Shown one piece after another: positions 152 through 22,036 of a stretch of 26,330 bases of DNA. Position 1 is the stretch's first letter, and each line of letters begins with the position of its first letter. Origin of the DNA: Mesaphorura yosii (taxonomy: Eukaryota; Arthropoda; Collembola; Poduromorpha; Tullbergiidae). The notes below the pieces were generated by a model. That model was given only the letters and a program-made list of their open reading frames with translations, was not told where the DNA came from and did no database searches. The stretch spans positions 1 to 26,330 of the forward strand of contig WIXG01000693.1 of NCBI GenBank assembly GCA_009869945.1. The letters are read 5' to 3'. The translations under genes were made by a program, and so were the position numbers.

Positions 152-1802
152 TTAATAACTGAATAAATTGTGCGTCATGAGTAGCATGGCACTTAAAAAT
201 CCAAATCCGAGCACCGAGAATTGTCCGAACATGGAAGTTCCTCTGTCTGATTTGTCAGCTGGTTTAAGCAAGCGTTGGAGCATTCCGTGAAGCATTTTGA
301 CTTGAGGACCATCCCGGGTTGCTAAAATTCAAGGGTAAGCGTAAAATTAAGGGTCCACGTTCTTTACTCGTCGGTGTCATTGGTCTTAAGCTTTCGCTCA
401 CCATAATCAGGCCCGCTGTGGGCGAAAAAGTCCCAGCATCCATTCAGGCTCACCAAAGTGGCCCGAGCCAAAGGAAAAACCATGATCACATGATTCTCCT
501 CGGCCACATGCAGGAATTTGGACCTTGTGAAAGTGCTTTTTGCCGATTGCGGACTGATTTCATCATTTCAAATCAATTAAGCTAAAAACCTTAAAAACCT
601 TGGTTTGAACTGGCAAATTTTTCTTACTTTGATCCGCCACACCCGTGAAAGTGGAAATGGAGAAGGCATTCATTCGCAGAATTCTGGCAGTACTCAGGAA
701 TGTAAATCCATCCAACTTCTCCCATCGAAATATGCTTCAAATCCCTGCCGGAGAAGAACTCGCTTTGGTTAAACAGCTGCAGTTCGCCGATTTGCCTGTT
801 GGCTTCAAGATAAGAAAGATAAAATACGACTGGGTATATAAGAAACGGGTTTAAATACCATCTGGTTTGATGATCTCGTCTCCAATCATGAACTTCATCA
901 TTTCGTACGCCCCGGAAAAGTTGCAATTGACAAATCGTGGTCCAACCGCAAATATTTCACTCACGTACGCCTCTTGTTCTTCGTGGGGGCTCCGAGCGTG
1001 GCAGTCTTTGCCGGTGTCGTCAGTTGGCTTGACATGAAAACGTGTGTTATATTAAATCTGTAAGGGTTTTCCCGTTAATGATTCTCATTCTTACAAAGTC
1101 ATGCCCCGCATCGTGTGTCGTCAGTTGGAGGTTGGCTGTGTTTGGGACAAAATTGTGATAAAAGTCGATATTCTGCTTCGCGACGTCCACTGGAATCAGC
1201 GTGTCGCGCTCGCCGGCCCACACAAACACTTTCTGATCTACGAGGCCTTCGAGTGGGTCGATCATATCCCGCGATGCGTACTTCCGAGTCTCCTCCACGG
1301 CGAGGCTGATGTTGTAACGACCAAAGAGGGTGTTTGGAATGACTGGAAAGGTCTGCTGGAGCCACGTCGAGCAACCCAGGCCGAATGAGAGCAGGTTTCC
1401 GTTCCCGCAGCGGTAATACGCTTAAACGAAAGCAAAATCAGCATCAGCGCAGGTGACCGAGGATCCACGATCCACGCAAAGCAAGTCACGAGCCTTACCC
1501 ATTGAAAACAGAGCCACTCCACTGAAAAGTGAAGAATGCACCATGTGAAAGGTGGTTGCCATTGCGGATCCGCTTGAGAAGCCAGAGAGCGTGACCTTGT
1601 CCTTGCGAATGTTAGGGAAGGATTCTGCAAAGAAAAGATGGTTTAATCCAAAAAGTTAAAATGGCTCCCCCGAACTGGTTAATTCAGAACTGAACGTACT
1701 CAAGTTCATGACATCCTGCGCCTGCCCCGAAACCCCTAAATTACGGCTCCAGGCCACGGAAACCAGGAGAAGGAACCAAATTATCTGATGCTGGCGAGCC
1801 AT
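152..1802 (-). CDS. Secreted PHB-depolymerase-like esterase (alpha/beta hydrolase), 7 exons
   Basis: Exons by eye, in transcript order: 1802-1700, 1624-1499, 1420-1095, 1027-859, 802-628, 523-402, 321-152. The phases join cleanly to give 396 aa. Residues 1-27 look like a signal peptide (hydrophobic IIWFLLLVSVAW). The lipase box GFSSG is at 49-53, so Ser51 is the likely nucleophile. Asp149 (GERDTLIP) and His183 (DAGHDF) complete a plausible triad. A later part reads WIYIPEYC...HFHFHGCGGSK and then GCWDFFAHSGPDY, the two-part layout of the extracellular poly(3-hydroxybutyrate) depolymerase/esterase family. The last ~15 residues are hydrophobic (VLGFGFLSAMLLM), so a GPI signal or membrane tail is possible. 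AATAAA lies just past the stop (minus strand, 139-134). Known for the family: hydrolysis of polyester or other short-chain esters. The animal substrate is unknown. Six introns show it is a resident eukaryotic gene and not contamination. Confidence 0.85.
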
Positions 1803-2310
1803 TTTATGTAGCTTACTGAGTTTACTACAATTCAAGACAACTGACTGAATTTAGAATGGAATGCCAACTGTTCAAGTGTCATTTGTCAACCTTTTGCTTG
1901 CTTCATAATCACATAGGCTTATCTCGCTATCGATGCAAGTGTAAATTGAGAAAAATCAATTGCACAGTACAGCTGTCAAGTTGTCGCCTGTTCTGTTGCC
2001 ATTTGTTTCTGTGTTAATTCCCTGCGATAAAAATTGAAATGCCCCCGGACATTTGATTTGATACTGACATTCTGTAGTTTAATTTGCTGTTGCAATGCTC
2101 AATGCTATGCTCTACGAAAGAATTATCTGATAAGGACACCTACCTATATGACCGGGAGGCTCGATTCAGCACACCACACGCCGTTTAAAGTTTTATTGTA
2201 AATCACTATCTTAATTACAGCATGATTTATACTTAATTATTATTGTACAAAGGCAATTATTAAAGAAATCAGTCGTCCCGTGTAGCAATTCTCATCCTCA
2301 GGATTTGTTG
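1803..2310. other. Intergenic: esterase 5' region and URI1 3' UTR
   Basis: No coding sequence seen. The left part is the upstream region of the minus-strand esterase. The right part holds the URI1 3' UTR, with a minus-strand AATAAA at 2197-2192, about 115 nt past the URI1 stop. Confidence 0.6.
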
Positions 2311-3168
2311 TTAATCGTTTTCTTCTCGCGATTTCTTGAATTTACTGACTCGTTTCTCCTTAACGGGAGCAGATGCTGACGCGGTTGGTTGCCTCTCGAT
2401 GACGGTGTCTCCCACCGCTGCTGGAGCGGCTGTGCCGGCACTGAAGCTGCTACTGGAAGTGATTGGCAGCGACTTGGTTGATGTTGGTTGTACTGCTTCC
2501 GACATTTGACCAGATGATTTCTTCACTAATGCAGGCACAGCCACCGCCTTTGCTGGCGCTCGCCGCTCGAACTTATACTCGTACTCATCTTCCTGCAGTT
2601 CCAGCTCGTCCAGGCGACTCATCACATCCTGGAATTCAGTTTCGCCACCTTTGTCATCTGCTCGCGCCTTTGCCTTTTCCTGATGATACTTTCGCAACTT
2701 CTCCCGATGCACCTTCCTCCACTCTTTTTCTTGCTCCTCGTCGTATTCTTCCCGAATCTCCTGCACATTCCCGTCCATGAGCTCCCCAAGCTGCTGACTT
2801 GTGGCTAGGCGCCAAGCTTGGCTCTGATCCAGCTCCTGTTTAAGTTTCTTGAGCGCGTCATCACATTTTCCGATTCGTCGATTGACAATTTCGATCGCGT
2901 GCTTTGCACTGCATTCCATAAACCAATTATCACCGAGTAAGCAAGTCACCTCGTTGGTATGAATCAGTTTCCCGGGAGCAAATGCTTTGGGTCCAAGAGG
3001 AAGAAGAGCACCCTGTTCCAATTTGCCTGAAAGACTGGTGAGCGTTGACTTCAAATTCACGTAATCACGCCTCCAATTTTCATGTAAAAGAGTCTGCTCC
3101 TGATTTGTTGCCAGTACACTTTGCTGGTGGGCAATGAGGGCCTCCAGCAATTGGCTGTCTTTGTCCAT
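2311..3168 (-). CDS. URI1: URI1, unconventional prefoldin RPB5 interactor (alpha-type prefoldin)
   Basis: Single-exon ORF of 285 aa. URI is the prefoldin-like subunit of the R2TP/URI-prefoldin assembly that binds RPB5 and helps assemble RNA polymerases. The diagnostic prefoldin block is at residues 59-83: GPKAFAPGKL, then HTNEV, then LLGDNWF. Coiled-coil helices flank it at about 5-50 and 90-140, followed by a charged linker and a Ser/Ala/Pro-rich tail ending in a basic RVSKFKKSR motif like that at URI C-termini. At 285 aa it is shorter than vertebrate URI (about 535 aa), mainly in the linker. The start ATG has a strong context (ACAATGG). No promoter space exists upstream: the stop of the WASHC3-like ORF ends 21 nt before this ATG and in the same frame, so URI1 probably depends on a shared transcript. 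Confidence 0.9.
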   Translation of the reverse strand: MDKDSQLLEALIAHQQSVLATNQEQTLLHENWRRDYVNLKSTLTSLSGKLEQGALLPLGPKAFAPGKLIHTNEVTCLLGDNWFMECSAKHAIEIVNRRIGKCDDALKKLKQELDQSQAWRLATSQQLGELMDGNVQEIREEYDEEQEKEWRKVHREKLRKYHQEKAKARADDKGGETEFQDVMSRLDELELQEDEYEYKFERRAPAKAVAVPALVKKSSGQMSEAVQPTSTKSLPITSSSSFSAGTAAPAAVGDTVIERQPTASASAPVKEKRVSKFKKSREEND

Positions 3169-3189
3169 TGTGAACTCGGGAGAACAAAA

Positions 3190-3612
3190 TCAATCTTCGA
3201 TTCGAGCAACAACGGGTGTCTCCGACGTTGACGAGGAGGTTTCACTCGGATCGCTGGGTGTGGGCGCTCCCTGTGAGGCTGCTTGAGGTTGGGGCTGTGG
3301 TGTCGCGAGCTTATGCTCCAGAATCTGCAACTGGCACTCAATGTTTTCTAGCTGAATCTGCATTCGATCAAGCTTCTCCACGCATTTAGTGGAGAATCGG
3401 TTCAGACCGATGACGGTCGTCGACAAGAAATGGTTCAGGAAGGCTGCAAGTCGTTTGGGGTGTTCCAAAGATGCAACCTGCAATTATGCAATGAATTTTA
3501 AGGATTCGTTCTCCAGGCCACAAACACGCACACTTAATGGCAATGGGTGACTTACGTGTTGAATATCAATTCCGGCCACAGCGATTGAATTTGTATCCAC
3601 AACGTCGTCCAT
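3190..3612 (-). CDS. WASHC3: WASHC3 (CCDC53)-like WASH complex subunit, short form
   Basis: Two exons: 3612-3556 and 3477-3190, with a 78-bp intron (GTAAGT...GCAG) in phase 0, giving 114 aa. WASHC3 is the small coiled-coil subunit of the WASH complex that drives Arp2/3 actin assembly on endosomes. The family signature is present: a short acidic start, GIDIQHV, then KRLAAFLNHFL, NRFSTKCVEKLDRM and a coiled coil QIQLENIECQLQILEHKL, closely matching the animal CCDC53 pattern. A Pro/Gln/Ser/Thr-rich tail follows and the ORF ends at TGA (3192-3190). Human WASHC3 is about 194 aa. Its conserved C-terminal half, with the DPRYxxYxKMxxVGVP-type motif, is absent here. The next gene, URI1, starts 21 nt later in the same frame, so a dicistronic mRNA or a stop readthrough product is possible. 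Confidence 0.85.
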
Positions 3613-4199
3613 TCCACTAATACGAATTTCCGACGGTCATAACGCAATCCAGTTCAGACTAGGACTAGCAGAGGAAAATGTAATGGCGCAAATTATTCGT
3701 CACATGAGTAAACTCCAGAAATCAAGAGCCAATTCTGGTAGTGTGCCGTTTATTCGCAAATCGGGAATTAGAAATCACACGATATGAAAGCGAATGTGAA
3801 ATGCGTGCTTGAATTGAGCGGTTTCATGATCTCGTCATTTCATCTTTTAACTAGCATTGCTGTGAACAAAGAATGAGTCTTGGTTTCTACCTCGCACGCA
3901 TACGCCATAAGAATAAAACTCAAAGATTGCGGATATCAACAGTAAGTTCAGAGTTTGATATTGAACGCGATCGTCGGATGTCAAATAATCAATTTATTTC
4001 GTCAATTCGCACATTGAACGATGAGTTTAGAATCTACAATAACTAACAAATCAGTAATCAACAAAAGTAGTGCCTGTCGGCCAGCGTAAATTAAAGCAAA
4101 ATCACTCTTTATTCGGTTAAGATTCTGTCGATCTCGACAGTGGTAAGCAGCTGCGGGGCGGGCGGGCTCTTGACCCGTCGCGTCGCCTGTCTTCATACT
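3613..4199. other. Intergenic: WASHC3 promoter side and lectin 3' UTR
   Basis: No convincing gene. Two minus-strand AATAAA signals (4113-4108 and 3998-3993) lie past the lectin stop. The rest, 3613-3990, is the upstream region for the minus-strand WASHC3-URI1 transcript. No TATA box was recognised there. Confidence 0.55.
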
Positions 4200-5113
4200 T
4201 CACACAGGAACAACCTTCCACCACTGGCTCTTATCGTCATGCGACTCCGGGTACGTTTGAATCGGGTGACCATGCCCCATGTTACGAAGACACCGGCCTG
4301 TTCTCATGTTCTTGATGAGAACATACTCGTGTCCGCCAAACGCCTGCACCGGAACCGGAAGCCATTGTTGGTTCTCCTTCCCATGAAACTCCTACGGCAT
4401 GGAATAGCGGAAGGGAAGGGTAATGTTGAAACTAAGACAGGATAATGTACGCAGTGGAATGACTTACATAAAGAATGATGTACAGGTCCTTCTTGTTCGC
4501 GTGGGTGGCATCATCCATCGCCAGTATTTTATCGCCCTTCCCACGAACCAGGCTGGTTATGCGATAACCAGCGCCCTCAACCTGAATGCTGAACTTCTGG
4601 TTTTGGCCACCCCCGTAGTGCCACATGACTATACGGGTGCCAGCGCCCTTCTTCGCCCCGCCTTCGGCGTCAAGGACCTATACACCAGTTGAATTGAACC
4701 TTTCTTGAAACTACGAGCTTCCTTAGGATCTAGAAGGGCAAACTTCGTTAAATACGTACATTTCCATCCACAGCGCTGATAACTTTACAGACGCCAGAGT
4801 TGAATATAGGTGGATGAGGTTGCGTGGGCGCGGGATAAGAAGGCATGACGCCACCGTGACCTCCTCCAAATCCACTACCCGGTTGACCACCGAACCCACC
4901 TCCAGGTTGACCACCAAATCCGCCGCCGGGCTGGCCACCGAAACCTCCACCTGGCTGACCGCCAAATCCACCACCTGGCTGACTCGGCTGAGCTCCAAAC
5001 CCGCCGCCTGGTTGACCTCCGTACCCACCGCCTTGCGGCGCTGGCTGTGCTCCAAATCCGCCTGGAGGGGCTGGTTGAGCACCATGCCCGCCTGATGGAC
5101 CTCCTGACCACAT
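4200..5113 (-). CDS. Gly-rich R-type (ricin-B-like beta-trefoil) lectin
   Basis: Three exons: 5113-4760, 4677-4468 and 4391-4200, both introns phase 0, giving 251 aa. Residues 1 to about 100 are low complexity, built from GGFGGQPG/GGFGAQP units. Residues from about 107 form a beta-trefoil of three subdomains: VISAVDGNVLDAEGG...NQKF, KILAMDD...NQQWLP, and NMRTGRCLRN...SQWWKV. The Q-x-W/F signature ends each subdomain. This is the carbohydrate-binding fold of R-type lectins. No catalytic toxin chain is present. There is no N-terminal signal peptide, so the protein is cytosolic or exported by a non-classical route, as suggested for galectin-3-like proteins that also carry a Gly/Pro-rich N-terminus. 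The ligand is unknown. The fold assignment is firm; the function is inference. Confidence 0.85.
4870..5095 (-). repeat. Tandem GGFGGQPG-coding repeat
   Basis: Within lectin exon 1, a roughly 24-27-bp unit encoding GGFGGQPG is repeated about five times, with GGFGAQPxxP variants to its 5' side. Codon choices differ between copies, so the array is not a very recent slippage product. Confidence 0.8.
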
Positions 5114-7400: not shown

Positions 7401-10400
7401 ATGGAGAATAACTTCCCTGCACCGCCCCCACCGCCGACGAAACGCCGCCAATCGGTGAGTCACTTGGTTCAATTGCAAAATGAAGGCATAGCTTCAATCA
7501 CAATTAGTTGTAACTTAATTTCCTTTGTACAGATCTTGAAATCAGGAAATTCCGTTCGTTATGAAGACACTGAGTGCATTGACATCACAGCATCAGTATT
7601 AACAGGACTTCAGAAATGTGAAGTGGCAGCTGCAGCTCCACCACCGCCACGGAGGGTTAGCTTCTTTGATGTTCCACAAGTCTTGGACATCAGTCCTGCT
7701 CATATGAGCTCGGACAGTCACAACCAAGACAGTGTGGACGAGATGAACAAAACATTTGCTTGCAACGCGCCGATGGAAATGAGCAGCCATTTCCACGAAA
7801 CGAACAAAACATTTACAACGTACAACACGCCGATGGAGATGAGTATCACCACGAACAGAACATTTGCTTACAGCGCGCCGATGGAAATGAGTCAGATGAG
7901 TAGCACGAACAGAACAATCTCTTGCAACATGCCGATGGAGATGAGCAACAACAACGAAACGAACAGAACTGTTGCTTACAACATGCCGATGGAGATGAGT
8001 GTCGTCGGACAAGGAAATCCTGCTCTTTCGACTTCGACTTGCTACGAGGCGATGGACATGTCATATGATGATCTATACATTGACACGGAAAGTATTACTG
8101 CAACTGCTGACATGTCGCGTGAAGACACTGCCCATGCACACGCTGTCACCAAAAATATTCCTGCTGACATGTCGTGTGTTGACACTACGCACGGAGTCAC
8201 TAAAATGTTTGCTGTTGACATGTCGTGTGAAGGTGAAGACGCTGACGCTACCCACGGTATCACCAAAAATATCCCTGTTGATATGTCGTGTGACGAAGTT
8301 CAGGCTGCCCATGGAACCACCAAAATGTATGCTGTTGATATGTCGTGTACAAATGTTACCCACGCCCACTGCTTGCACGAAGCTACTAAAAATAATGCAG
8401 TTGACATGTCGTTTGAGGATTCCGTATCTGAGAACTTGGACCGCAATCACAATCCAGCTTCAGAGTCATTACATACATTATTTGAAACTTCTCTGAAACC
8501 AGCGCCGCTGCCGGCACAGCAGCAGGTACCCGTGCGTCTGGTTCATCCTTCAGAAATCACCGGAAGGCCAAACGTTTTACCAAGCAAATATCAACCACCT
8601 CGACTGGCTCAGATGAATGACGCACGGACACAGAATCTTGTGGCGGATAACTCTCAGAACGTCGATTTCTTGCTCAGGTATCCAGGATCAAATACGGCTC
8701 AGAAGTGCTCCTATCCAACCCCAACGGATGGGTACGGCCAGTTCGGGTCAGCTAAAACACCTCGCAAGGGTCGGCAGCCTCAGTCTCAGCCTCCTCAGCG
8801 CTATCAGGCTCCCGTCGCAATGACATCTCAGTCACATCCACAACATCAATTTCCTCAACCATTCATCCAGAAAGTATTTCTGAGCTCGGTTGAAGTTCAG
8901 ACGTCACCGCTGACCACGTACATCTCGACAGGGACGTCAATTACGCCAAAAACACCCCAGCAGAAGACACCAAGGACATTTTTACTGAAGAGGGACTTTC
9001 AACAGCAAACCTCCAAGAATTCCACTCCCGAAGTACTGCCACAACCTGTATCGACTGCGAGTGAGGAGAAAGAAGAGCTCCAAGTGCTCGCTCCCGCAGC
9101 AATGCCGCCAAGAAACCAGGAACTTCCCAGTGCGAGTGTGAGTCGAAGCCAAAGCCATGATTATGGTCAAGAGTCAGAACATCAGCATCAGGTTAAGTCT
9201 CAGTCTCAGTCTCAGGCGACTCAGCTCCAGCCAAAGTCTTCTGCGGACCCAACCGAGATTAGAAGGGCGAACCAGCGCCGCCGCGAGACGTACACCGTGC
9301 AGAACTCCGTTTTTCCGGTGCCGAACATCGAGATTGACGGCGCAAATCAGAATTCGATGCCAGACTGCGGAATTGCCGACACGAGCAACCTCAGTTTTGC
9401 GAGCACACTATCTTCTGAGCCGGACCCTGGAGATCAAGCCCCAAATCCGGGTCTGGATGACACCCAGGACACCCACCAATTCGAAGGGCGTCTGGTGCAG
9501 CAGCAGCAGAAGTCAATGAATACAACCACCATCATCGGAGGCAGCCGCAGCGCAATTGACGACATCGATAAGACAGAGAAAAGCATTGAAGAGGTACGGC
9601 GTTCATTGGAATCTGCGCTAAATTCCACTGAAAACGGTAACGGTGGCCTAACAAGAGAAATTCTTCCTCGACGGTTTCCCGTCCCCGGTCGCGAGTACTA
9701 CGATCACGACCACCAAGACCAGTCAAACACAACGTTTAATGTCAACAACAACACCACGCTGACCCACGAAACCCTTCTTGGTCCTGGTCCCGGCGCGATC
9801 AGGAACGCCATCTTTGATAGAAGTCTATCCGCCGCCTATCAAAGCCAAGCACAGGCAATGACATCAGCTATCAACGCCAACATGAACTTGTCGCAAGCAA
9901 ATGGATTCGGATTGACGGAGGAAGTTTTGCCACCGCACCTGACTGTCAATAATGGCGGTAACATAACATTCCGAGCTGAGAGCACCACAACAATCACTCA
10001 AGAGACGTCATTCGTTGTTTCTGGTCACCAACAGCAGCAGCGGCGTGAGGAACAACGACCAATTACAGTGGCGGCAGCGACGCCAGCACAGGCAACCGCA
10101 GTGGCAGTGGTCCCGACCTCGTCTACGAACGACCGCTCCGCTAGAGATTTGATGCCTCCTCCAACTCCAAGGGGGCTGCCAACAATAACAGCCCCATGCG
10201 CAGCAGGCTTGCCGATGACTCCACAGCCCAAATCAAACTCATCAATTCCTCCGTCGATGGGATTGGGACCGCCGAGTGCCAAGAAGAGAAATCTCGATTT
10301 GTCCATGTCCATCTGCAGAGATCCTCAAGAACTCTGCTTCCTCGCATGGGAGTCTCATCTTGGTCAGAAAACGCGTCAATATCTCAAGAATTACGGCACC

Positions 10401-10682
10401 ATGTCCGACTGCGCAAAAACCCGCTTCTGTGCTCTCATGCGAGAGGAGCTGCTCAAACTGAACCGAATCGACTTCGAGAAATTCGCCGTCGACTTTGCTC
10501 ACGCCTTTCCAGAGTGGTTCATGCCTACCGTCCGGTCACATTTTGAAGTGCAAGAATTAGCCGCGATTCCGCTCCACGAGTACGACACGCACCCGACCAT
10601 CGTGAACATTACGGGCGGCCCTGAAGTCCTAAGGACTCAAACGCTGGAGGAGGTTCTGGCGAGCCTGAATTTGGTACTTTAG
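7401..10682 (+). CDS. KNL1: KNL1/Spc105R kinetochore scaffold, MELT-like repeats, atypical C-terminus
   Basis: Exons 7401-7454 and 7533-10682, with a 78-bp intron that carries no in-frame stop; the spliced protein is 1067 aa. The spliced N-terminus reads KRRQS|ILK and then RRVSF at 58-62. In KNL1 these are the basic SILK and RVSF PP1-docking motifs; RVSF is also the Aurora B target. MELT-like motifs follow: five [NT]-[KR]-T-x-x-x-x-x-P-MEMS units (about 7740-8000), one MDMS and six xDMS units (about 8050-8420). Known role: the phosphorylated repeats recruit Bub3-Bub1 for the spindle checkpoint. The long middle is Gln/Pro/Ser-rich and disordered. The last ~120 aa look folded (CFLAWESHLGQ, REELLKLNRIDFEKFAVDF) but I do not recognise a coiled coil or tandem RWD, the part that normally binds the kinetochore. 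AATAAA is at 10994. Confidence 0.85.
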   Translation: MENNFPAPPPPPTKRRQSVSHLVQLQNEGIASITISCNLISFVQILKSGNSVRYEDTECIDITASVLTGLQKCEVAAAAPPPPRRVSFFDVPQVLDISPAHMSSDSHNQDSVDEMNKTFACNAPMEMSSHFHETNKTFTTYNTPMEMSITTNRTFAYSAPMEMSQMSSTNRTISCNMPMEMSNNNETNRTVAYNMPMEMSVVGQGNPALSTSTCYEAMDMSYDDLYIDTESITATADMSREDTAHAHAVTKNIPADMSCVDTTHGVTKMFAVDMSCEGEDADATHGITKNIPVDMSCDEVQAAHGTTKMYAVDMSCTNVTHAHCLHEATKNNAVDMSFEDSVSENLDRNHNPASESLHTLFETSLKPAPLPAQQQVPVRLVHPSEITGRPNVLPSKYQPPRLAQMNDARTQNLVADNSQNVDFLLRYPGSNTAQKCSYPTPTDGYGQFGSAKTPRKGRQPQSQPPQRYQAPVAMTSQSHPQHQFPQPFIQKVFLSSVEVQTSPLTTYISTGTSITPKTPQQKTPRTFLLKRDFQQQTSKNSTPEVLPQPVSTASEEKEELQVLAPAAMPPRNQELPSASVSRSQSHDYGQESEHQHQVKSQSQSQATQLQPKSSADPTEIRRANQRRRETYTVQNSVFPVPNIEIDGANQNSMPDCGIADTSNLSFASTLSSEPDPGDQAPNPGLDDTQDTHQFEGRLVQQQQKSMNTTTIIGGSRSAIDDIDKTEKSIEEVRRSLESALNSTENGNGGLTREILPRRFPVPGREYYDHDHQDQSNTTFNVNNNTTLTHETLLGPGPGAIRNAIFDRSLSAAYQSQAQAMTSAINANMNLSQANGFGLTEEVLPPHLTVNNGGNITFRAESTTTITQETSFVVSGHQQQQRREEQRPITVAAATPAQATAVAVVPTSSTNDRSARDLMPPPTPRGLPTITAPCAAGLPMTPQPKSNSSIPPSMGLGPPSAKKRNLDLSMSICRDPQELCFLAWESHLGQKTRQYLKNYGTMSDCAKTRFCALMREELLKLNRIDFEKFAVDFAHAFPEWFMPTVRSHFEVQELAAIPLHEYDTHPTIVNITGGPEVLRTQTLEEVLASLNLVL
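7738..8010 (+). repeat. MEMS repeat array in KNL1 (5 units)
   Basis: Five units of about 18-19 codons. Each has N-[KR]-T-[FIV]-x4-5-P-MEMS. The T-aromatic pair sits about ten residues ahead of the MELT-like core, as in vertebrate T-Omega/MELT units. Confidence 0.85.
8050..8420 (+). repeat. DMS repeat array in KNL1 (7 units)
   Basis: One EAMDMS and six xDMS units. After the first two, unit starts alternate: KNIPADMSC, KMFAVDMSC, KNIPVDMSC, KMYAVDMSC, KNNAVDMSF. His/Thr-rich spacers lie between. The alternation suggests growth by duplication of a two-unit block. Confidence 0.8.
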
Positions 10683-13557: not shown

Positions 13558-15880
13558 TTACTGGGCTTCTAGGCAATGGCAAGCGCTGTCGACGAAATGA
13601 GGCACATTTTCGTACTCCTCCAGACAAGCCCCGCGTTTTCCGTACGCGTTCACCCTCACAAGTTCTCCTTGTACGTGGTACTTGATTGCCTTGTCATTGG
13701 CCTTACTCTTGGAAACGTTTTTCCTGTCCTCCACATCCACGCCCACGCTCGCTTCGTATAACCCTCCGCCTGGCGTCGTCCGAAACACAATCTCGAACGA
13801 ACTCTTGTCGCCATGCTCGGAGCTCAGCCTCCGTGCCTCCTCCATTCCGTAAAGTTTCAGCTGTGCACATTTGTCAAAAAGACTCAAGCGACTATTCAGC
13901 TCCTCCAGCGCAACTTCAACTGCTTGCTGGACCTCATTGTTTGTCTCCGGCGACTCGACATTGGTTTTCCTCCAGCAAATGCACCACTCCGCAGGAATGT
14001 TGGCTGATTCGCAGGTTCGGTCAGCCGGCACGGGCAGGAAAAGGCTTTGGCCTTTATTTCGAGATAAGTTCGGTGCTCGCGACCGGCTTTCTATCGCCTG
14101 ATTCGTTATCGTGTCCAGGTCACCCAGGTCGAGCAGAGTCTCGTGCAAGTCGAACGGTGTCGTGAGCCTGACGGTGTTGACTCTCATATTCTCCACTGCC
14201 GTGCCGTATTTCTGCTGAAACCACTCCGGGAACACAAAGTAGAGGAAGGGCATTCGGGACTCGATCGACCCCGCGTTGGTTCTCGAGTATTTGCCGTACG
14301 CCATTCCGTGGTCAGACATGAGCACGACGATAGTGTTATCCAGAAACCGTGTCCGTGTCCATTTCTAGTTGAGTTTCGTTAGTAAATTGTGTAGCGGGTC
14401 GTCCAAAAACCGGGCGTAGCCAATTACGTCATGTGCAGCCGTGGCGGACCACAAAAAATGAAAGTACGGGGCTCCTTCATCTTCAAAAGCTTCGGCCACG
14501 TTGTAGATTCGATCAAAGAGCAGATTCTGGACCCACTGATAGTCGAAGCAGCCGAACGTGAACTGATTCCCTTTCGCTTCGTTGAGGTACTTCAGTTCGT
14601 GGAGGTAATCCGTCCACAAATAGTCGGCAGTCTCGTTTTCGCTCAATTTCAGTGCTTGCTTGAAAAAAGTGTTGGGAAGACCAAAATCGTCCTCCGCCCG
14701 CAGAACGCTGTAACCTTTCCGCTGGAATTTTTTCCAGACGAGGTCGCACCGCTGCTCTCCGGGCGGTACTTCCGGGTCTTGACTGTCTTTCTTCAGTTTG
14801 CAGCCCGTTAGCATCGGCATCACATTTCCTTGCGTCCCCGCACTGACTTTATTGTGCCCAAAGAATTCGACGGCCCCAAGTTGCTGGAGGAGTTCCTGGG
14901 ATTTGGGGAAGGAACGAATGAAATTGGCGTGGGATATTGAGTCGAGACCAACAAGGATTATGCTCGGCGCTCGTTGACCATCGGACGGCGGCTGCTGCTG
15001 CTCTGACGTTTTGGACTTGAGTCTGAAGAATTCGAACTGATCTTGGTAATCAACTTCGTTTGAGTCCAATTTGAAGCATTTTACATTGATGTAGTCGTAT
15101 GTCTCGGGAATTTGAGTCACAGCGCCAGAAATCGGTAGGCATTCTGTCTTCGTTCGGTTCCTACGTCTAAATGTCGAGAAGCCATGAATTATTTTTTACA
15201 TTCTTCCTTCATTATCAACATGTATCCCCTTCTGTGACCCGTGACCCTTTAGAGTGGGAGTTTTAAATCACAAATAGAAATGAGCAAAGCTTGCTTACTC
15301 TCCATGTTCCGAAAACCCCAGAAAGCAGCAGTTTACAGTCTTCCAGTACTCAAGAAATTCGGGTGACTCGACCCGTACCAAACTCCCGTGATCCGGGTGG
15401 AATTTTACGAGCTCCTTTTCCTTCTCGTCTTCGCCAATTAATCTGAACGACTCAGCGGCGAACGGCTTGAGTCTTGGAATGCTGCAAAGTTGGTCTATTT
15501 CAGGACGAGATGCTGCTTCCCCTGCGACTGCGCCTGCGTCTGAAACTTTCATCAAATCATCAGTTCATCATAATACTTCATTGTGTCCTCATTCAGGCAT
15601 CAATTAATCAAAATTATGCACATACAGAATACAAAATTACTTGAAATACAGCCTTACTTTTGTCCATCTCCGTCTCCGTCTTCGTGTTCTCCTTGCCAGC
15701 GTACAGGAGCTCAACTTTTATCGAATTCTGAATCTGGAAAGACGACGAAAGGCTCCTGAAGGACATTGTCATTTGGTTCGCAGCGAAAGTCAAGAGAACT
15801 GTGCTTATCAGCAGTGCACCGAGAATATTCCTCTTCGTGAAGGTGCGAGCGGATACAAAGTCCATTTTGTGCCTGTGCAC
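13558..15880 (-). pseudogene. DUF229 sulfatase-like membrane protein, copy 1, with in-frame TAG
   Basis: Exons 15880-15658, 15539-15299 and 15166-13558 (phases 1 and 2) give 690 codons, but codon 422 is TAG (14367-14365). DUF229 proteins belong to the alkaline-phosphatase/sulfatase-like superfamily; their reaction is not established. Seen: an N-terminal type II anchor (NILGALLISTVLLTFAANQM); IILVGLDSISHANFIRSFPKS-like first metal/nucleophile block; HDVIGYARFLDDP; and, after the stop, SDHGMAYGKYSRTNAGSIE, the Asp-His metal block. The frame stays open on both sides of the TAG to a normal end (SACHCLEAQ). Relative to copy 2 there is also a ~4-codon insertion at the same place, with a doubled ACACGG. 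Translation as read gives 421 aa lacking the second metal block. It could be a young pseudogene, a readthrough gene, or a sequence error. Confidence 0.7.
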
Positions 15881-16408: not shown

Positions 16409-18768
16409 CTAATGATACATACAATGACAAGCACTGTTGACTAAATAAGGCACAGTCCGTTTCGGGTTCGCCGTCGCGTCGCCTTTTTCATACTCCTCCA
16501 GACAAGCACCACGCGTTCCGTACGCGTTCACTCGCACAATGCCACCCAGCACCCGAAAAGCACCTTGGCCGCCACCACCACCCCGTCTCGTCTTTGCGAC
16601 GCTGACTTCGTATAAGGCACCGCCGGGCCTCGTCTTGAATACAATCTCGTACGAACTCTTCTCGAGTAGCCTCGAACTCAGTCGACGTGCCGCCTCGATC
16701 TCGTCCAGCTCCAGTTGGGCACACTTCGCGAAAGGGCGCAGGTGGCCGTTCAGTTCGCCGAGGGCAACTCGGGCCGCTTCCTGAATGTCGGCGTCATCAG
16801 CCGGCGACTCGATGCTCGACTTCGTCCAACAAATGCACCATTCATCAGGAATCCCGGCGAGCTCACACGTACGATTGACTGGGACGGGCAGGAAAAGACT
16901 CTGGCCTCTGGACTTCTTCATTTTACTCGTCCACGTGCGCGTCCGCTCGCGTGTCTCGAGCGCCTGATCAGTAATTGATCGCAGGTCAGCTAGATCTAGC
17001 AACGTCTCGTGTAAGTCGAAGGGCGACGTTAATCTCATCGTATTAGTCTTCATGTTTTCAATCGCCTTGCTGAAGCGCTTATAGAACCATTCCGGAAACA
17101 CAAAATACAGCAGTGGCATCCGGGACTCGATTGACCCGGCGTTCGTGCGTGAGTACGTGCCGTACGCCATTCCGTGGTCGGACGCCAGCACGAGGATCGT
17201 GTTGTTCAGGAATTGTTTGGCAGACAATTTCGTCAGAGTCATGTACAGGGGATCGTCCAAGTATCGGGCGTAGCCAATCACGTCGTGTGCGGTCGTGGCC
17301 GTCCACGTAAAATGAAAATAGGGCTCCTGCTGGTGTTGGTGCCGACTCGCAGCTGGGGCTCCAAAGGCCTCGGCCACGTTGAGGATCCGCTCGAAGAGCA
17401 AATGCTGCACCCACTGGTAGTCGAAGCACCCGAATGTGAACTGATTCGCCTTTGCCGTGTTCAGCCTCTTCATTTCACGGATGTAAGGCGTCCACCGGTA
17501 GTCTGATATTTGTTCGTCGGTCAGTGGAAGATGGCGTTGCGTACGGAGAACCGTGAAAAATTCATTGTTCAGTCCAAGATCGTCTTCGGCACGGAGCACA
17601 GTGTAATTTTGTTGTTTGTACTTGTTCCAGACGAGGTCACAAAACTCTGGGCGCCCGTCCCCGCGCGCGTTCGGCATCAGCTCGGGAATCTGGCTATTCT
17701 TCTCCAGCCTGCAACCCGTCAGCATCGCGAGTACATTCCCCTGCGTCGCGACACTGATTTTGTTATGCCCAAAGAATTCAATTGCACCGAGTTGCTGCAT
17801 GAGGAATTGGTGTGACTTTGGAAAGGAACGGATAAAATGCACGTGCGAGACAGAGTCGAGACCAATAAAAAGAATGTTCGGGGCTGCACTCGCAGGCGTT
17901 GGCGAAGACCGCGATTGAGATTGAGACTGGCTGCGTTTGTATTTTGACGATTTTGAATGCTTGAGCCTGAAGAACTCAAACTGATCTTGATAGTCCATCG
18001 TGTCTGAATCCAGCTTGTAACATTTGACGTTGATAAAGTCATACTTGGACGGGATCGGAGTGATTGATGATAAAATCGGCTCGCAAATTGCCGACGATTC
18101 ATTCCTGTGGACAAAAAAGTCAGTTTATGCGATTCACGAATCGCGAGTAGAAAATTTACCGCGAGAAGCATTGAGATTTGAAAAGAGATTCCTTACCCCC
18201 GATTTCCATTTCCCCAATACCCAATGTAGCAGCATTTGACAGTTTCCCAGTATTTGGCCTCGGCCATCGAAGCTCGGCCGTTGAAGTTAACCCGCACCAG
18301 ATTTCCATGCTCCGGGTAGAATTTCACAAGCTCGTCTCTTCGTAGGCACTTGATTGGGTCTTTCCCCACGCCGTCGCCAGCAATCAGTCGCAGGGCATTC
18401 GCGTTGAACGGGTCAAGACTTGGAATGTTGCAAAGAGCGCCGGGCTCCATCGGCAGCGTATTGTAGACAGAATCTGACGAAGCAAAGTCGCAATCAATAT
18501 TCAATGAGGTCAAGCTTGGCTTAAAGCCTCAATCTCAATCAATCATTTCTGCAAATCTGCAATTACTTCCTGTATTCTCGTACTCGTCGTAGGATGAAAA
18601 GAAGCCAATGTTTACGAAGTTATGGATTTGGAAGAAGGAAGTGCCACCGTTCAGGAACGGTGTCATTTGATGAGTGAGGAATATCACGAGCAGGGTGCTT
18701 ATCAGCAGCCCAAAGAGGATGTTGCGCCTGGTGCAGGTGTAGGACCCACCGCCGGAAGTCTGGGCCAT
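16409..18768 (-). CDS. DUF229 sulfatase-like type II membrane protein, copy 2 (intact)
   Basis: Exons 18768-18567, 18473-18197 and 18104-16409, phases 1 and 2, giving 724 aa. The exon/intron layout is the same as copy 1, so the pair arose by tandem duplication of a three-exon gene. A transmembrane anchor lies at about 16-36 (NILFGLLISTLLVIFLTHQM). Catalytic-fold blocks: NILFIGLDSVSHVHFIRSFPK, LAMLTGCRL, LRAEDDLGL, HDVIGYARYLDDP, LVLASDHGMAYGTYSRTN, ESRMPLLYFVFPEWF, and SPFDLHETLLDL. The Asp/Ser and Asp-His pairs sit where alkaline-phosphatase-superfamily enzymes bind metal. Cys-rich C-terminal motifs (CELAGIPDEWCICW; SACHC) suggest a disulfide-stabilised luminal or extracellular domain. Family length in insects is about 600-700 aa, so this copy is complete. 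The substrate is unknown. Confidence 0.88.
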
Positions 18769-20468: not shown

Positions 20469-20909
20469 TCACAAAGCCATATGAAAATGGTGGCTCTTCA
20501 GCAGAAAACCCTTGTTAAGATACATACGATGAGCATCGTTCCTCTCGTAGCCGCTGTCCAACGATACCGCATCGCACTTCAGCTCTTTCGCCTTCGCCAC
20601 GACTGTATCCATGATCAGGGAGCCGTACCCCTTTCGCTGGCTCCCGACATGTGTGCAGTAGTCGTCGATGTACAGTGTTAGTCCGGACCAGAGAAAGTTC
20701 ATGACGCGGTAGCCCAGCACCGTGGCGGCTCTTTGACCTGGCGCCGACTCGATGTACAGCAAGTGATAGCCATGGTCTCGCTGCTGCTGCGTGACGCGAT
20801 CCACAAACTGCTCCTTCTTCAGGTGCGGCCGGAGTTGGAACATCGTCTCCCAGCAGGCCAGAATCTGCTCCGGTGTGGTGGCTTCTTTGACAACGGCGAC
20901 GGTGGACAT
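20469..20909 (-). CDS. GNAT family N-acetyltransferase, copy 1
   Basis: 146 aa, no intron in the CDS. GNAT enzymes transfer acetyl from acetyl-CoA to an amine. The acetyl-CoA-binding motif A is seen as DDYCTHVGSQRKGYGSLIMD, with Q/R-x-x-G-x-G/A, preceded by the beta4 strand. Motif B is AVSLDSGYERNDAHRMYLNKGF, the usual Tyr-x-x-x-GF ending. A 5' UTR intron (20993-20910, AAG|GTAAGT to CACAG) ends exactly at the ATG, so the start is well fixed. It resembles small stand-alone acetyltransferases common in bacteria and found in scattered animals. The substrate cannot be told. Its nearest relative is the gene 0.6 kb upstream. Confidence 0.85.
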   Translation of the reverse strand: MSTVAVVKEATTPEQILACWETMFQLRPHLKKEQFVDRVTQQQRDHGYHLLYIESAPGQRAATVLGYRVMNFLWSGLTLYIDDYCTHVGSQRKGYGSLIMDTVVAKAKELKCDAVSLDSGYERNDAHRMYLNKGFLLKSHHFHMAL

Positions 20910-21502: not shown

Positions 21503-22036
21503 TCAGAATTGAGCCGGTTTCAGCTCCAGATCGAAATGGTGGCTTTCGAGTATGAATCCTTTATTCAGGTAGAGGCGGTGAGCCTCGTGGCGCCTGTAGA
21601 CGCTGTCCAGACAAATTGCTTCGCAGCCCGCGAGTTTGGCTCGCTCCTTAAGGGTGTCGACGAGGAGCGACGCGTAGCCTCTTCCTCGACACTCTGGCAG
21701 CGTGCACATGGACTCGAGGATCATCGTTTTTCCGGACCATAAGAAGTTTTGGATGCGGTACGCGATGATGGCGACTGCTGGAGTGCAACCATTGTCCGGT
21801 GCCCGTGCCTGTGCCGTGTGCTTGTCTCCTTCGATGTACAGCAGCGTGTAACTCGGATCGTCCCTCTTGACTTGGCGTACGCGATCGACGAATTCTTCTT
21901 TTACTAGATGCGAGTTGAGCTCGAACATCGGACCCCAGCACGCGAGCACTTCGGCGGTCGTGGTGGCTTCTTTAATGTCGACAGTTTCACTCGAAGAAGG
22001 TTTCTCAGTCATCATAGTTGGGAAATTTAAAATCAC
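21503..22036 (-). CDS. GNAT family N-acetyltransferase, copy 2
   Basis: 177 aa, intronless. It aligns with copy 1 along its length: shared IKEATT..ILACW, a MFxLxxHLxKExFVDRVxQ block, NFLWSG, motif A MCTLPECRGRGYASLLVD (R-x-x-G-x-A) and motif B AICLDSVYRRHEAHRLYLNKGF. It differs by a longer N-terminus and an insert around AQARAPDNGCTP. The start could be 22036 or one of the internal Met codons (MMTEK). The order and shared strand with copy 1 indicate tandem duplication followed by strong divergence. The substrate is unknown. Confidence 0.83.
   Translation of the reverse strand: MILNFPTMMTEKPSSSETVDIKEATTTAEVLACWGPMFELNSHLVKEEFVDRVRQVKRDDPSYTLLYIEGDKHTAQARAPDNGCTPAVAIIAYRIQNFLWSGKTMILESMCTLPECRGRGYASLLVDTLKERAKLAGCEAICLDSVYRRHEAHRLYLNKGFILESHHFDLELKPAQF

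What the first reader, a model, noticed from the sequence alone, without database searches (positions are those of the whole stretch)
2311..3612. WASHC3 and URI1 lie in one frame, separated by a single TGA and 21 nt
The WASHC3-like ORF ends at TGA 3192-3190. Seven codons later, in the same frame, URI1 begins with an ATG in strong context (ACAATGG). There is no room for a promoter, so the two share a transcript. A WASH-complex subunit and a prefoldin-like RNA-polymerase assembly factor have no known joint gene that I can recall. Either this is a true dicistronic mRNA with reinitiation, or stop readthrough gives a fusion, or the TGA is recent.
Basis: partly seen in the sequence, partly recalled or inferred. 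Interest (0 to 1): 0.75.

Follow-up and report, generated by a model that had tools for sequence, protein, structure and literature searches.

The report
Two unrelated genes sharing one transcript
In the genome of an unnamed animal, the gene for a WASH-complex subunit and the gene for a prefoldin-like protein sit only 21 bases apart and probably share one messenger RNA, an arrangement already known for other gene pairs in flies and other organisms.

Summary
On the minus strand a two-exon WASHC3 (CCDC53) ORF (ATG 3612, intron 3555-3478) ends at TGA 3192-3190. After 21 nt without a stop, a URI1 ORF complete at both ends starts in the same frame (ATG 3168, TAA to 2311). The shared frame means little (about 1 chance in 4).

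Better evidence is the 3' end. AATAAA and ATTAAA are absent for 500 nt after the WASHC3 stop (only the weak AAGAAA occurs), while 9 of 9 other ORF ends examined in the window have one starting within 312 nt, URI1's at 2197. So WASHC3 RNA most likely runs through URI1. Best reading: an ordinary dicistronic gene, URI1 made by leaky scanning and/or reinitiation.

'No room for a promoter' goes too far: a URI1 start site inside WASHC3 is not excluded. Readthrough fusion is disfavoured: homologues start near this ATG, and none of 130 URI1 homologues found is annotated with a CCDC53 domain. A pyrimidine-rich tract with a poor GAG acceptor leaves a splicing route open. Both proteins are shortened. No RNA and no relative's DNA were available. 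New member of a known kind; modest interest.

The parts
3556..3612 (-). WASHC3 exon 1 (coding part, 19 codons)
   Evidence: ATG with G at -3 and +4; splices in phase 0 to exon 2 to give 114 aa
3478..3555 (-). WASHC3 intron, 78 nt, GTAAGT...TTGCAG (inferred from sequence, no cDNA)
   Evidence: donor scores 8 of 9 to MAG|GTRAGT, CAG acceptor
3190..3477 (-). WASHC3 exon 2, ending in TGA 3192-3190
   Evidence: PF10152 hit over profile positions 1-77 of 147; same locus found in the own-genome search
3169..3189 (-). 21-nt intercistronic stretch, 7 open codons, with an 11/12-pyrimidine tract followed by GAG
2311..3168 (-). URI1 ORF, 285 aa, single exon, ending in TAA
   Evidence: PF02996 hit; homologues; aligned at both ends
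2192..2197 (-). AATAAA, probable shared poly(A) signal, 114 nt after the URI1 stop
3613..4112 (-). about 500 nt between an AATAAA after the upstream ORF (4113) and the WASHC3 ATG, presumed promoter and 5' leader of the unit; holds further AATAAA at 3998 and 3754 and nine ATGs
   Evidence: TSS not mapped

Best explanation
This is a dicistronic gene. One transcription unit starts upstream of WASHC3 and ends at the poly(A) signal after URI1. It encodes a shortened WASHC3 and then URI1 as two separate proteins. URI1 is probably translated from that mRNA by ribosomes that miss the WASHC3 start (leaky scanning), and/or resume scanning after the TGA and reinitiate 21 nt on at an ATG in good context. 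Shown from sequence: the two ORFs, the frame, the spacing, and the lack of AATAAA or ATTAAA between the WASHC3 stop and the end of URI1. Inferred: the single mRNA and the way URI1 is translated.
For: In the 500 nt after the WASHC3 stop none of ten poly(A) hexamers occurs; 9 of 9 other ORF ends examined have AATAAA (7) or ATTAAA only (2) starting within 312 nt, against 23% of random window positions. URI1's stop is followed by AATAAA at +114. The spacing is 21 nt against 508-2470 nt for seven other same-strand neighbours. URI1's ATG context is ACAATGG; only 2 other ATGs lie between the two starts in the spliced RNA, both with a pyrimidine at -3 and C at +4. Both ORFs look complete as separate proteins: URI1 begins near where homologues begin and ends in the conserved VSKFK motif. 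Precedent: Drosophila sloth1/sloth2, 5-nt gap, reporter data supporting leaky scanning, and 196 annotated bicistronic fly genes (passages of PMC9681215).
Against: No RNA data. The weak hexamer AAGAAA, not among the ten, does occur 340 and 458 nt after the WASHC3 stop, so a WASHC3 3' end inside URI1 is possible. Absence of AATAAA/ATTAAA inside coding sequence is expected anyway (3 in 8,688 coding nt). The 312-nt span was chosen after looking, and the ORF ends are not confirmed gene ends. WASHC3's own start has a good context (G at -3 and +4), unlike sloth1, so leaky scanning should be limited. Nine ATGs precede it in the possible leader. Out-of-frame ATGs inside WASHC3 are not significantly depleted: 1 observed, 1.97 expected, P 0.35. 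No relative with the same arrangement could be examined.
Confidence: 0.58

Rival explanations
1. Overlapping genes. URI1 has its own promoter inside the WASHC3 intron or exon 2 and makes a separate monocistronic mRNA; WASHC3 mRNA runs into or through URI1, and URI1 on it is not translated.
For: Nothing in the sequence excludes a start site within WASHC3. It avoids the cost of second-cistron translation. DPE-like pentamers occur there, but that pattern matches throughout.
Against: No TATA or Inr-like match between 3612 and 3168; but the same scan finds no TATA and only one Inr (3876) upstream of WASHC3 either, so it does not discriminate.
Confidence: 0.22
2. Splicing route. A spliced leader (trans) or the shared first exon (cis) is joined at the AG ending at 3175, giving URI1 its own capped 5' end from one pre-mRNA, as in nematode-type operons or by alternative splicing. 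The cis join from donor 3555 would also be in frame.
For: TTTTGTTCTCCCGAG lies between stop and ATG; it is the richest pyrimidine tract (11/12, next best 8) among 21 AG sites listed from 3470 to 3169. 2.3% of random 21-mers in the window hold such a tract and 0.5% of window AGs follow one.
Against: GAG is a poor acceptor (recalled general knowledge). The nematode SL1 model gave no match at E<=1, but only 50 of 21,707 first-look candidates were scored and leaders of other phyla would not match. At the 6 other starts examined, no AG within 40 nt upstream follows more than 8 pyrimidines in 12; YAG sites occur near three of them (WASHC3, PLD, SATa).
Confidence: 0.13
3. Stop readthrough at TGA gives a WASHC3-URI1 fusion protein, with the TGA as a regulated or recent stop.
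For: Same frame, 7 open codons between.
Against: Frame and open codons occur by chance about 1 time in 4 (10 of 30 tight pairs in frame). TGA is followed by T, not the leakier C (recalled). URI1's ATG has good context and lies near where homologues start. No PF10152 in the precomputed Pfam column of 130 distinct URI1 homologues from two searches (4 of them carry no Pfam annotation), with admitted lengths of about 157-499 and 271-863 aa, and the WASHC3 protein has no BLASTP match at E<=1e-3 among these 130. The second search scored only the 7,995 candidates sharing most words.
Confidence: 0.04
4. Assembly or sequencing artefact at the junction, or a decayed copy.
For: Not tested against reads. 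WASHC3 is short.
Against: One URI1 match in the assembly, both ORFs intact, contig without N.
Confidence: 0.03

Closest known systems
Drosophila dicistronic genes, e.g. sloth1/sloth2 (PMC9681215, passages read)
   Same: Two separate ORFs on one strand with a very short gap (5 nt there, 21 nt here), good context at the second ATG
   Different: There the ORFs are out of frame, short, related to each other, and the first ATG is suboptimal; here the ORFs are in frame, not recognisably related, and the first ATG context is good. There cDNA, RT-PCR and reporter data exist; here none.
Budding-yeast bicistronic transcripts without trans-splicing (PMC8573964, abstract and outline seen)
   Same: Adjacent same-strand genes on one mRNA; the abstract reports shorter spacers for highly expressed ones
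   Different: There the transcripts are mapped and compared with monocistronic equivalents; here no transcript data
Nematode-type operons resolved by SL trans-splicing (recalled)
   Same: Close same-strand genes; a pyrimidine tract plus AG before the downstream ATG
   Different: Poor GAG acceptor, no SL1 match in a limited search, no AATAAA/ATTAAA between the cistrons
WASHC3 / CCDC53 (PF10152)
   Same: Profile positions 1-77 match above cut-off
   Different: No match to profile positions 78-147 in the ORF or elsewhere in the assembly in a search blind to introns
URI1 / unconventional prefoldin RPB5 interactor
   Same: Prefoldin domain, HTNEVTxLLGDNWF motif, RLDELE segment, C-terminal VSKFK motif
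   Different: Lacks the internal segment holding PxDIYxxF...PKSILK-type motifs, as does the JGI protein P0001

Membership tests
WASHC3 (CCDC53) | PF10152 match above the curated cut-off | tested here: met
   47.1 bits against 24.6, profile 1-77 of 147
WASHC3 (CCDC53) | Full-length domain including the C-terminal half | tested here: not met
   No match to profile 78-147 in the ORF; own-genome search at E<=10 gave this locus and one sub-threshold hit (22.2 bits) that I read by eye as a SNAP29-type SNARE; a short separate exon could have been missed
URI1 | Prefoldin domain and best named homologues called URI | tested here: met
   PF02996 64.8 bits; most named hits are URI / RPB5-interacting proteins, the nearest (Orchesella) is an 'unnamed protein product'; only weak prefoldin matches among solved structures
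URI1 | Conserved C-terminal motif (VSKFKxxR) | tested here: met
   KRVSKFKKSR near the C-terminus; S, F and K invariant in the 10-row alignment
URI1 | Internal PxDIYxxF...PKSILK-type segment | tested here: not met
   gap in the window protein and in P0001
Dicistronic gene | Two separate ORFs in tandem, short gap | tested here: met
Dicistronic gene | No strong 3'-end signal between the ORFs, shared poly(A) signal | tested here: met
   no AATAAA/ATTAAA between 3190 and 2311; AATAAA at 2197; weak AAGAAA present at 2850 and 2732
Dicistronic gene | One mRNA carrying both ORFs | not testable with these tools
   no transcript data held
SL-type operon | Trans-splice acceptor before the second cistron | tested here: inconclusive
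   pyrimidine tract present, acceptor is GAG
SL-type operon | SL RNA gene in the genome | tested here: inconclusive
   nematode SL1 model: 0 matches at E<=1, 50 of 21,707 candidates scored; leaders of other phyla are not covered
Stop-readthrough gene | Fused homologues or homology across the stop in relatives | tested here: not met
   no CCDC53 annotation or WASHC3 BLASTP match among 130 URI1 homologues; conservation of the linker codons not testable

The most novel reading that the evidence does not exclude
The WASHC3-URI1 pair is a two-gene operon whose downstream message is freed by splicing, trans or cis, at the pyrimidine-rich AG that fills the 21-nt gap, possibly in an invertebrate lineage for which operons have not been described (lineage not identified here).
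Probability: 0.1. Interest if true: 0.6.

Novelty: new member of a known kind. Interest (0 to 1): 0.3.

Why it matters
[quoted passage not shown] It would be a clean natural case for measuring second-cistron translation after a 114-codon first ORF. It also warns annotators: the single TGA invites a false fused gene model.

Tried and rejected
Naming the organism: the 18S family search of the own genome failed three times; an rRNA pattern and COX1 gave no match. The closest named URI1 is from the springtail Orchesella dallaii, 45% identity over 68% of the query, too far to name the taxon. The assembly has 93.0 Mb in 1127 contigs.

Synteny in relatives: URI1 in viral contigs and genome contigs gave no relative; by their descriptions these collections are viral and prokaryotic. 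WASHC3 found no homologue in the protein database for lack of shared words and none among solved structures.

Genome rate of tight same-strand ORF pairs: 200 kb of one contig gave 30 pairs, 10 of them in frame, but introns and broken ORFs cannot be told from dicistrons, so no rate is claimed. The ORF-length floor there did not catch WASHC3-URI1 itself.

RNA structure at the junction: z -1.18, 26 of 200 shuffles fold as well; nothing special. Rfam on 1800-4200 at E<=1: one chance-level hit far below its gathering score, hence no SECIS or IRES match. Selenocysteine at the TGA is rejected for that reason and because URI1 starts anew at its own ATG.

Fusion by splicing out the TGA: 56 GT-AG combinations of 40 nt or more keep the frame; the best donor scores 5 of 9 against 8 for the real intron, and of the ten shown nine have acceptors inside URI1; rejected.

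Literature: CCDC53 with URI1 gave 1 paper and WASHC3 with URI1 gave 1; from listing and abstract start, an ovarian-cancer chemotherapy review and a stem-cell psychiatry review, neither opened. Searches on dicistrons, operons and trans-splicing showed nothing on this pair in listings and abstract starts.

Full report
What is there. On the minus strand, an ATG at 3612 opens a 19-codon exon (3612-3556). A 78-nt intron follows (3555-3478, donor CAC|GTAAGT, acceptor TTGCAG), and exon 2 runs to TGA 3192-3190, giving a 114-aa protein. It matches PF10152 (CCDC53 = WASHC3) at 47.1 bits against a cut-off of 24.6, but only over profile positions 1-77 of 147. Seven open codons follow, and in the same frame ATG 3168 opens a 285-aa ORF ending at 2311. 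It matches Prefoldin PF02996, and most of its named homologues are URI proteins. It has one match at E<=0.001 in the 93-Mb assembly.

How surprising is the frame? Two same-strand ORFs share a frame one time in three, and 75.7% of random 7-codon stretches of the window lack a stop, so the single-stop, one-frame look has a probability of about 0.25 once two ORFs lie this close. In 200 kb of another contig, 10 of 30 tight same-strand ORF pairs were in frame. The window has two other in-frame tight pairs: 14820-14365 / 14319-13558 (45 nt apart, apparently two parts of one DUF229-like gene) and a low-scoring pair with the same 21-nt gap. The closeness of two recognisable, different genes is the real observation: seven other same-strand neighbouring ORFs in the window are 508 to 2470 nt apart (upstream exons not established).

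Do they share a transcript? Ten ORF ends in the window were examined for ten poly(A) hexamers in the following 500 nt. Nine of them (URI1; the ORF ending at 4200, lectin-like by eye; PLD; a KNL1-like ORF by eye; two DUF229-like; two acetyltransferases; a dehydrogenase-like ORF just under its Pfam cut-off) have AATAAA (7) or ATTAAA only (2) starting within 312 nt. WASHC3 has none of the ten. Random window positions have AATAAA or ATTAAA within about 312 nt in 23% of cases and within 500 nt in 34%. Against this: the weak variant AAGAAA, not among the ten, does occur 340 and 458 nt after the WASHC3 stop, inside URI1. The 312-nt span was chosen after seeing the data, several ORF ends are not proven gene ends, and AATAAA/ATTAAA are rare in coding sequence anyway (3 in 8,688 nt). 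Still, a separate WASHC3 mRNA would need an end signal and there is no strong one, while URI1 has AATAAA at 2197. The upstream ORF is followed by AATAAA at 4113, leaving about 500 nt for a promoter ahead of WASHC3. I infer that WASHC3 RNA runs through URI1.

How would URI1 be made? URI1's ATG (ACAATGG) has A at -3 and G at +4. Between the WASHC3 ATG and the URI1 ATG the spliced RNA holds two other ATGs, one in frame and one opening 5 codons, both with a pyrimidine at -3 and C at +4. That suits leaky scanning. Against it: WASHC3's own ATG has G at -3 and +4; nine ATGs lie in the possible leader between 4110 and 3612, how many of them in the mRNA being unknown; and the paucity of out-of-frame ATGs in WASHC3 is not significant (1 against 1.97 expected, P 0.35). 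Reinitiation after a 114-codon ORF is usually inefficient (general knowledge). I cannot choose between these.

The gap itself. The 21 nt are TTTTGTTCTCCCGAGTTCACA. The AG ending at 3175 follows 11 pyrimidines in 12, the best of the 21 AG sites between 3470 and 3169 (next best 8). Only 2.3% of random 21-mers in the window hold such a tract, and 0.5% of window AGs follow one. This looks like a splice acceptor except that the AG is preceded by G, which animal acceptors avoid (recalled). A cis join from the exon 1 donor to this site would be in frame. The nematode SL1 model has no match at E<=1 with 50 of 21,707 candidates scored, which says little outside nematodes. None of the other 6 starts examined has an AG within 40 nt upstream that follows more than 8 of 12 pyrimidines; YAG sites lie near three of them. 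I keep splicing at 0.13.

Readthrough. Nothing supports it beyond the frame. URI1 homologues begin near this ATG. No PF10152 annotation appears in the 130 distinct homologues from two searches, which admitted lengths of about 157-499 and 271-863 aa (4 of the 130 carry no Pfam annotation, and the second search scored only the 7,995 candidates sharing most words). WASHC3 itself has no BLASTP match at E<=1e-3 among them. TGA is followed by T (recalled as less leaky than C). Fifty-six frame-keeping introns could remove the TGA on paper, but the best donor scores 5 of 9, where the real WASHC3 donor scores 8.

Both proteins are short. WASHC3 lacks a match to the C-terminal half of its Pfam profile. 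A genome search with PF10152, blind to introns, found only this locus and one sub-threshold hit that I read by eye as a SNAP29-type SNARE. URI1 aligns at both ends but lacks the internal segment that holds PxDIYxxF...PKSILK-type motifs in most rows; the JGI homologue P0001 lacks it too. URI's PP1 binding and its C-terminal 'URI box' are mentioned in passages of PMC2346476 and PMC3648552. Which named box the lost segment corresponds to I did not establish.

What is known. Drosophila sloth1/sloth2 share an mRNA with a 5-nt gap, with reporter evidence for leaky scanning; the same paper counts 196 annotated bicistronic fly genes (passages). Yeast bicistronic mRNAs without trans-splicing are described (abstract). 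Searches for CCDC53 with URI1 and for WASHC3 with URI1 returned one paper each, by listing and abstract start unrelated reviews, not opened. Within these and the searches I saw no report of this pair. So this is a new instance of a known arrangement, with moderate confidence.

Limits. No RNA, no reads, no DNA of relatives, no named taxon. The conclusion on transcript structure is inference from sequence.

Noticed in passing
window 3190-3612: WASHC3 lacks a match to the C-terminal half of PF10152 (positions 78-147) and no other copy was found in the assembly; a shortened WASH-complex subunit.
   Followed up: partly
window 2311-3168: URI1 lacks the internal PxDIYxxF...PKSILK-type segment, as does JGI protein P0001; a shared reduction or a clade trait.
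   Followed up: partly
window 7401-10682 (+): 1093-aa single ORF with many M[ED]MS-type repeats, looks like KNL1/Spc105R (by eye; no Pfam hit at E<=0.01).
   Followed up: no
window 13558-14820 and 16409-17998 (-): Two neighbouring DUF229/sulfatase-like genes (the second by Pfam, the first by eye) that look like a tandem duplication; the first is split into two in-frame ORFs 45 nt apart, by an intron or a break.
   Followed up: no
window 20469-20909 and 21503-22015 (-): Two tandem GNAT acetyltransferase ORFs (Pfam) with similar sequences by eye.
   Followed up: no
window 4748-5113 (-): ORF of GGGFGGQPGG repeats upstream of an exon that looks lectin-like by eye (4391-4203).
   Followed up: no
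L009 5802-8054 (contig C1 55802-58054): Two good-scoring ORFs in one frame with a single stop and 42 nt between them; may be an intron or a broken gene; not examined.
   Followed up: no
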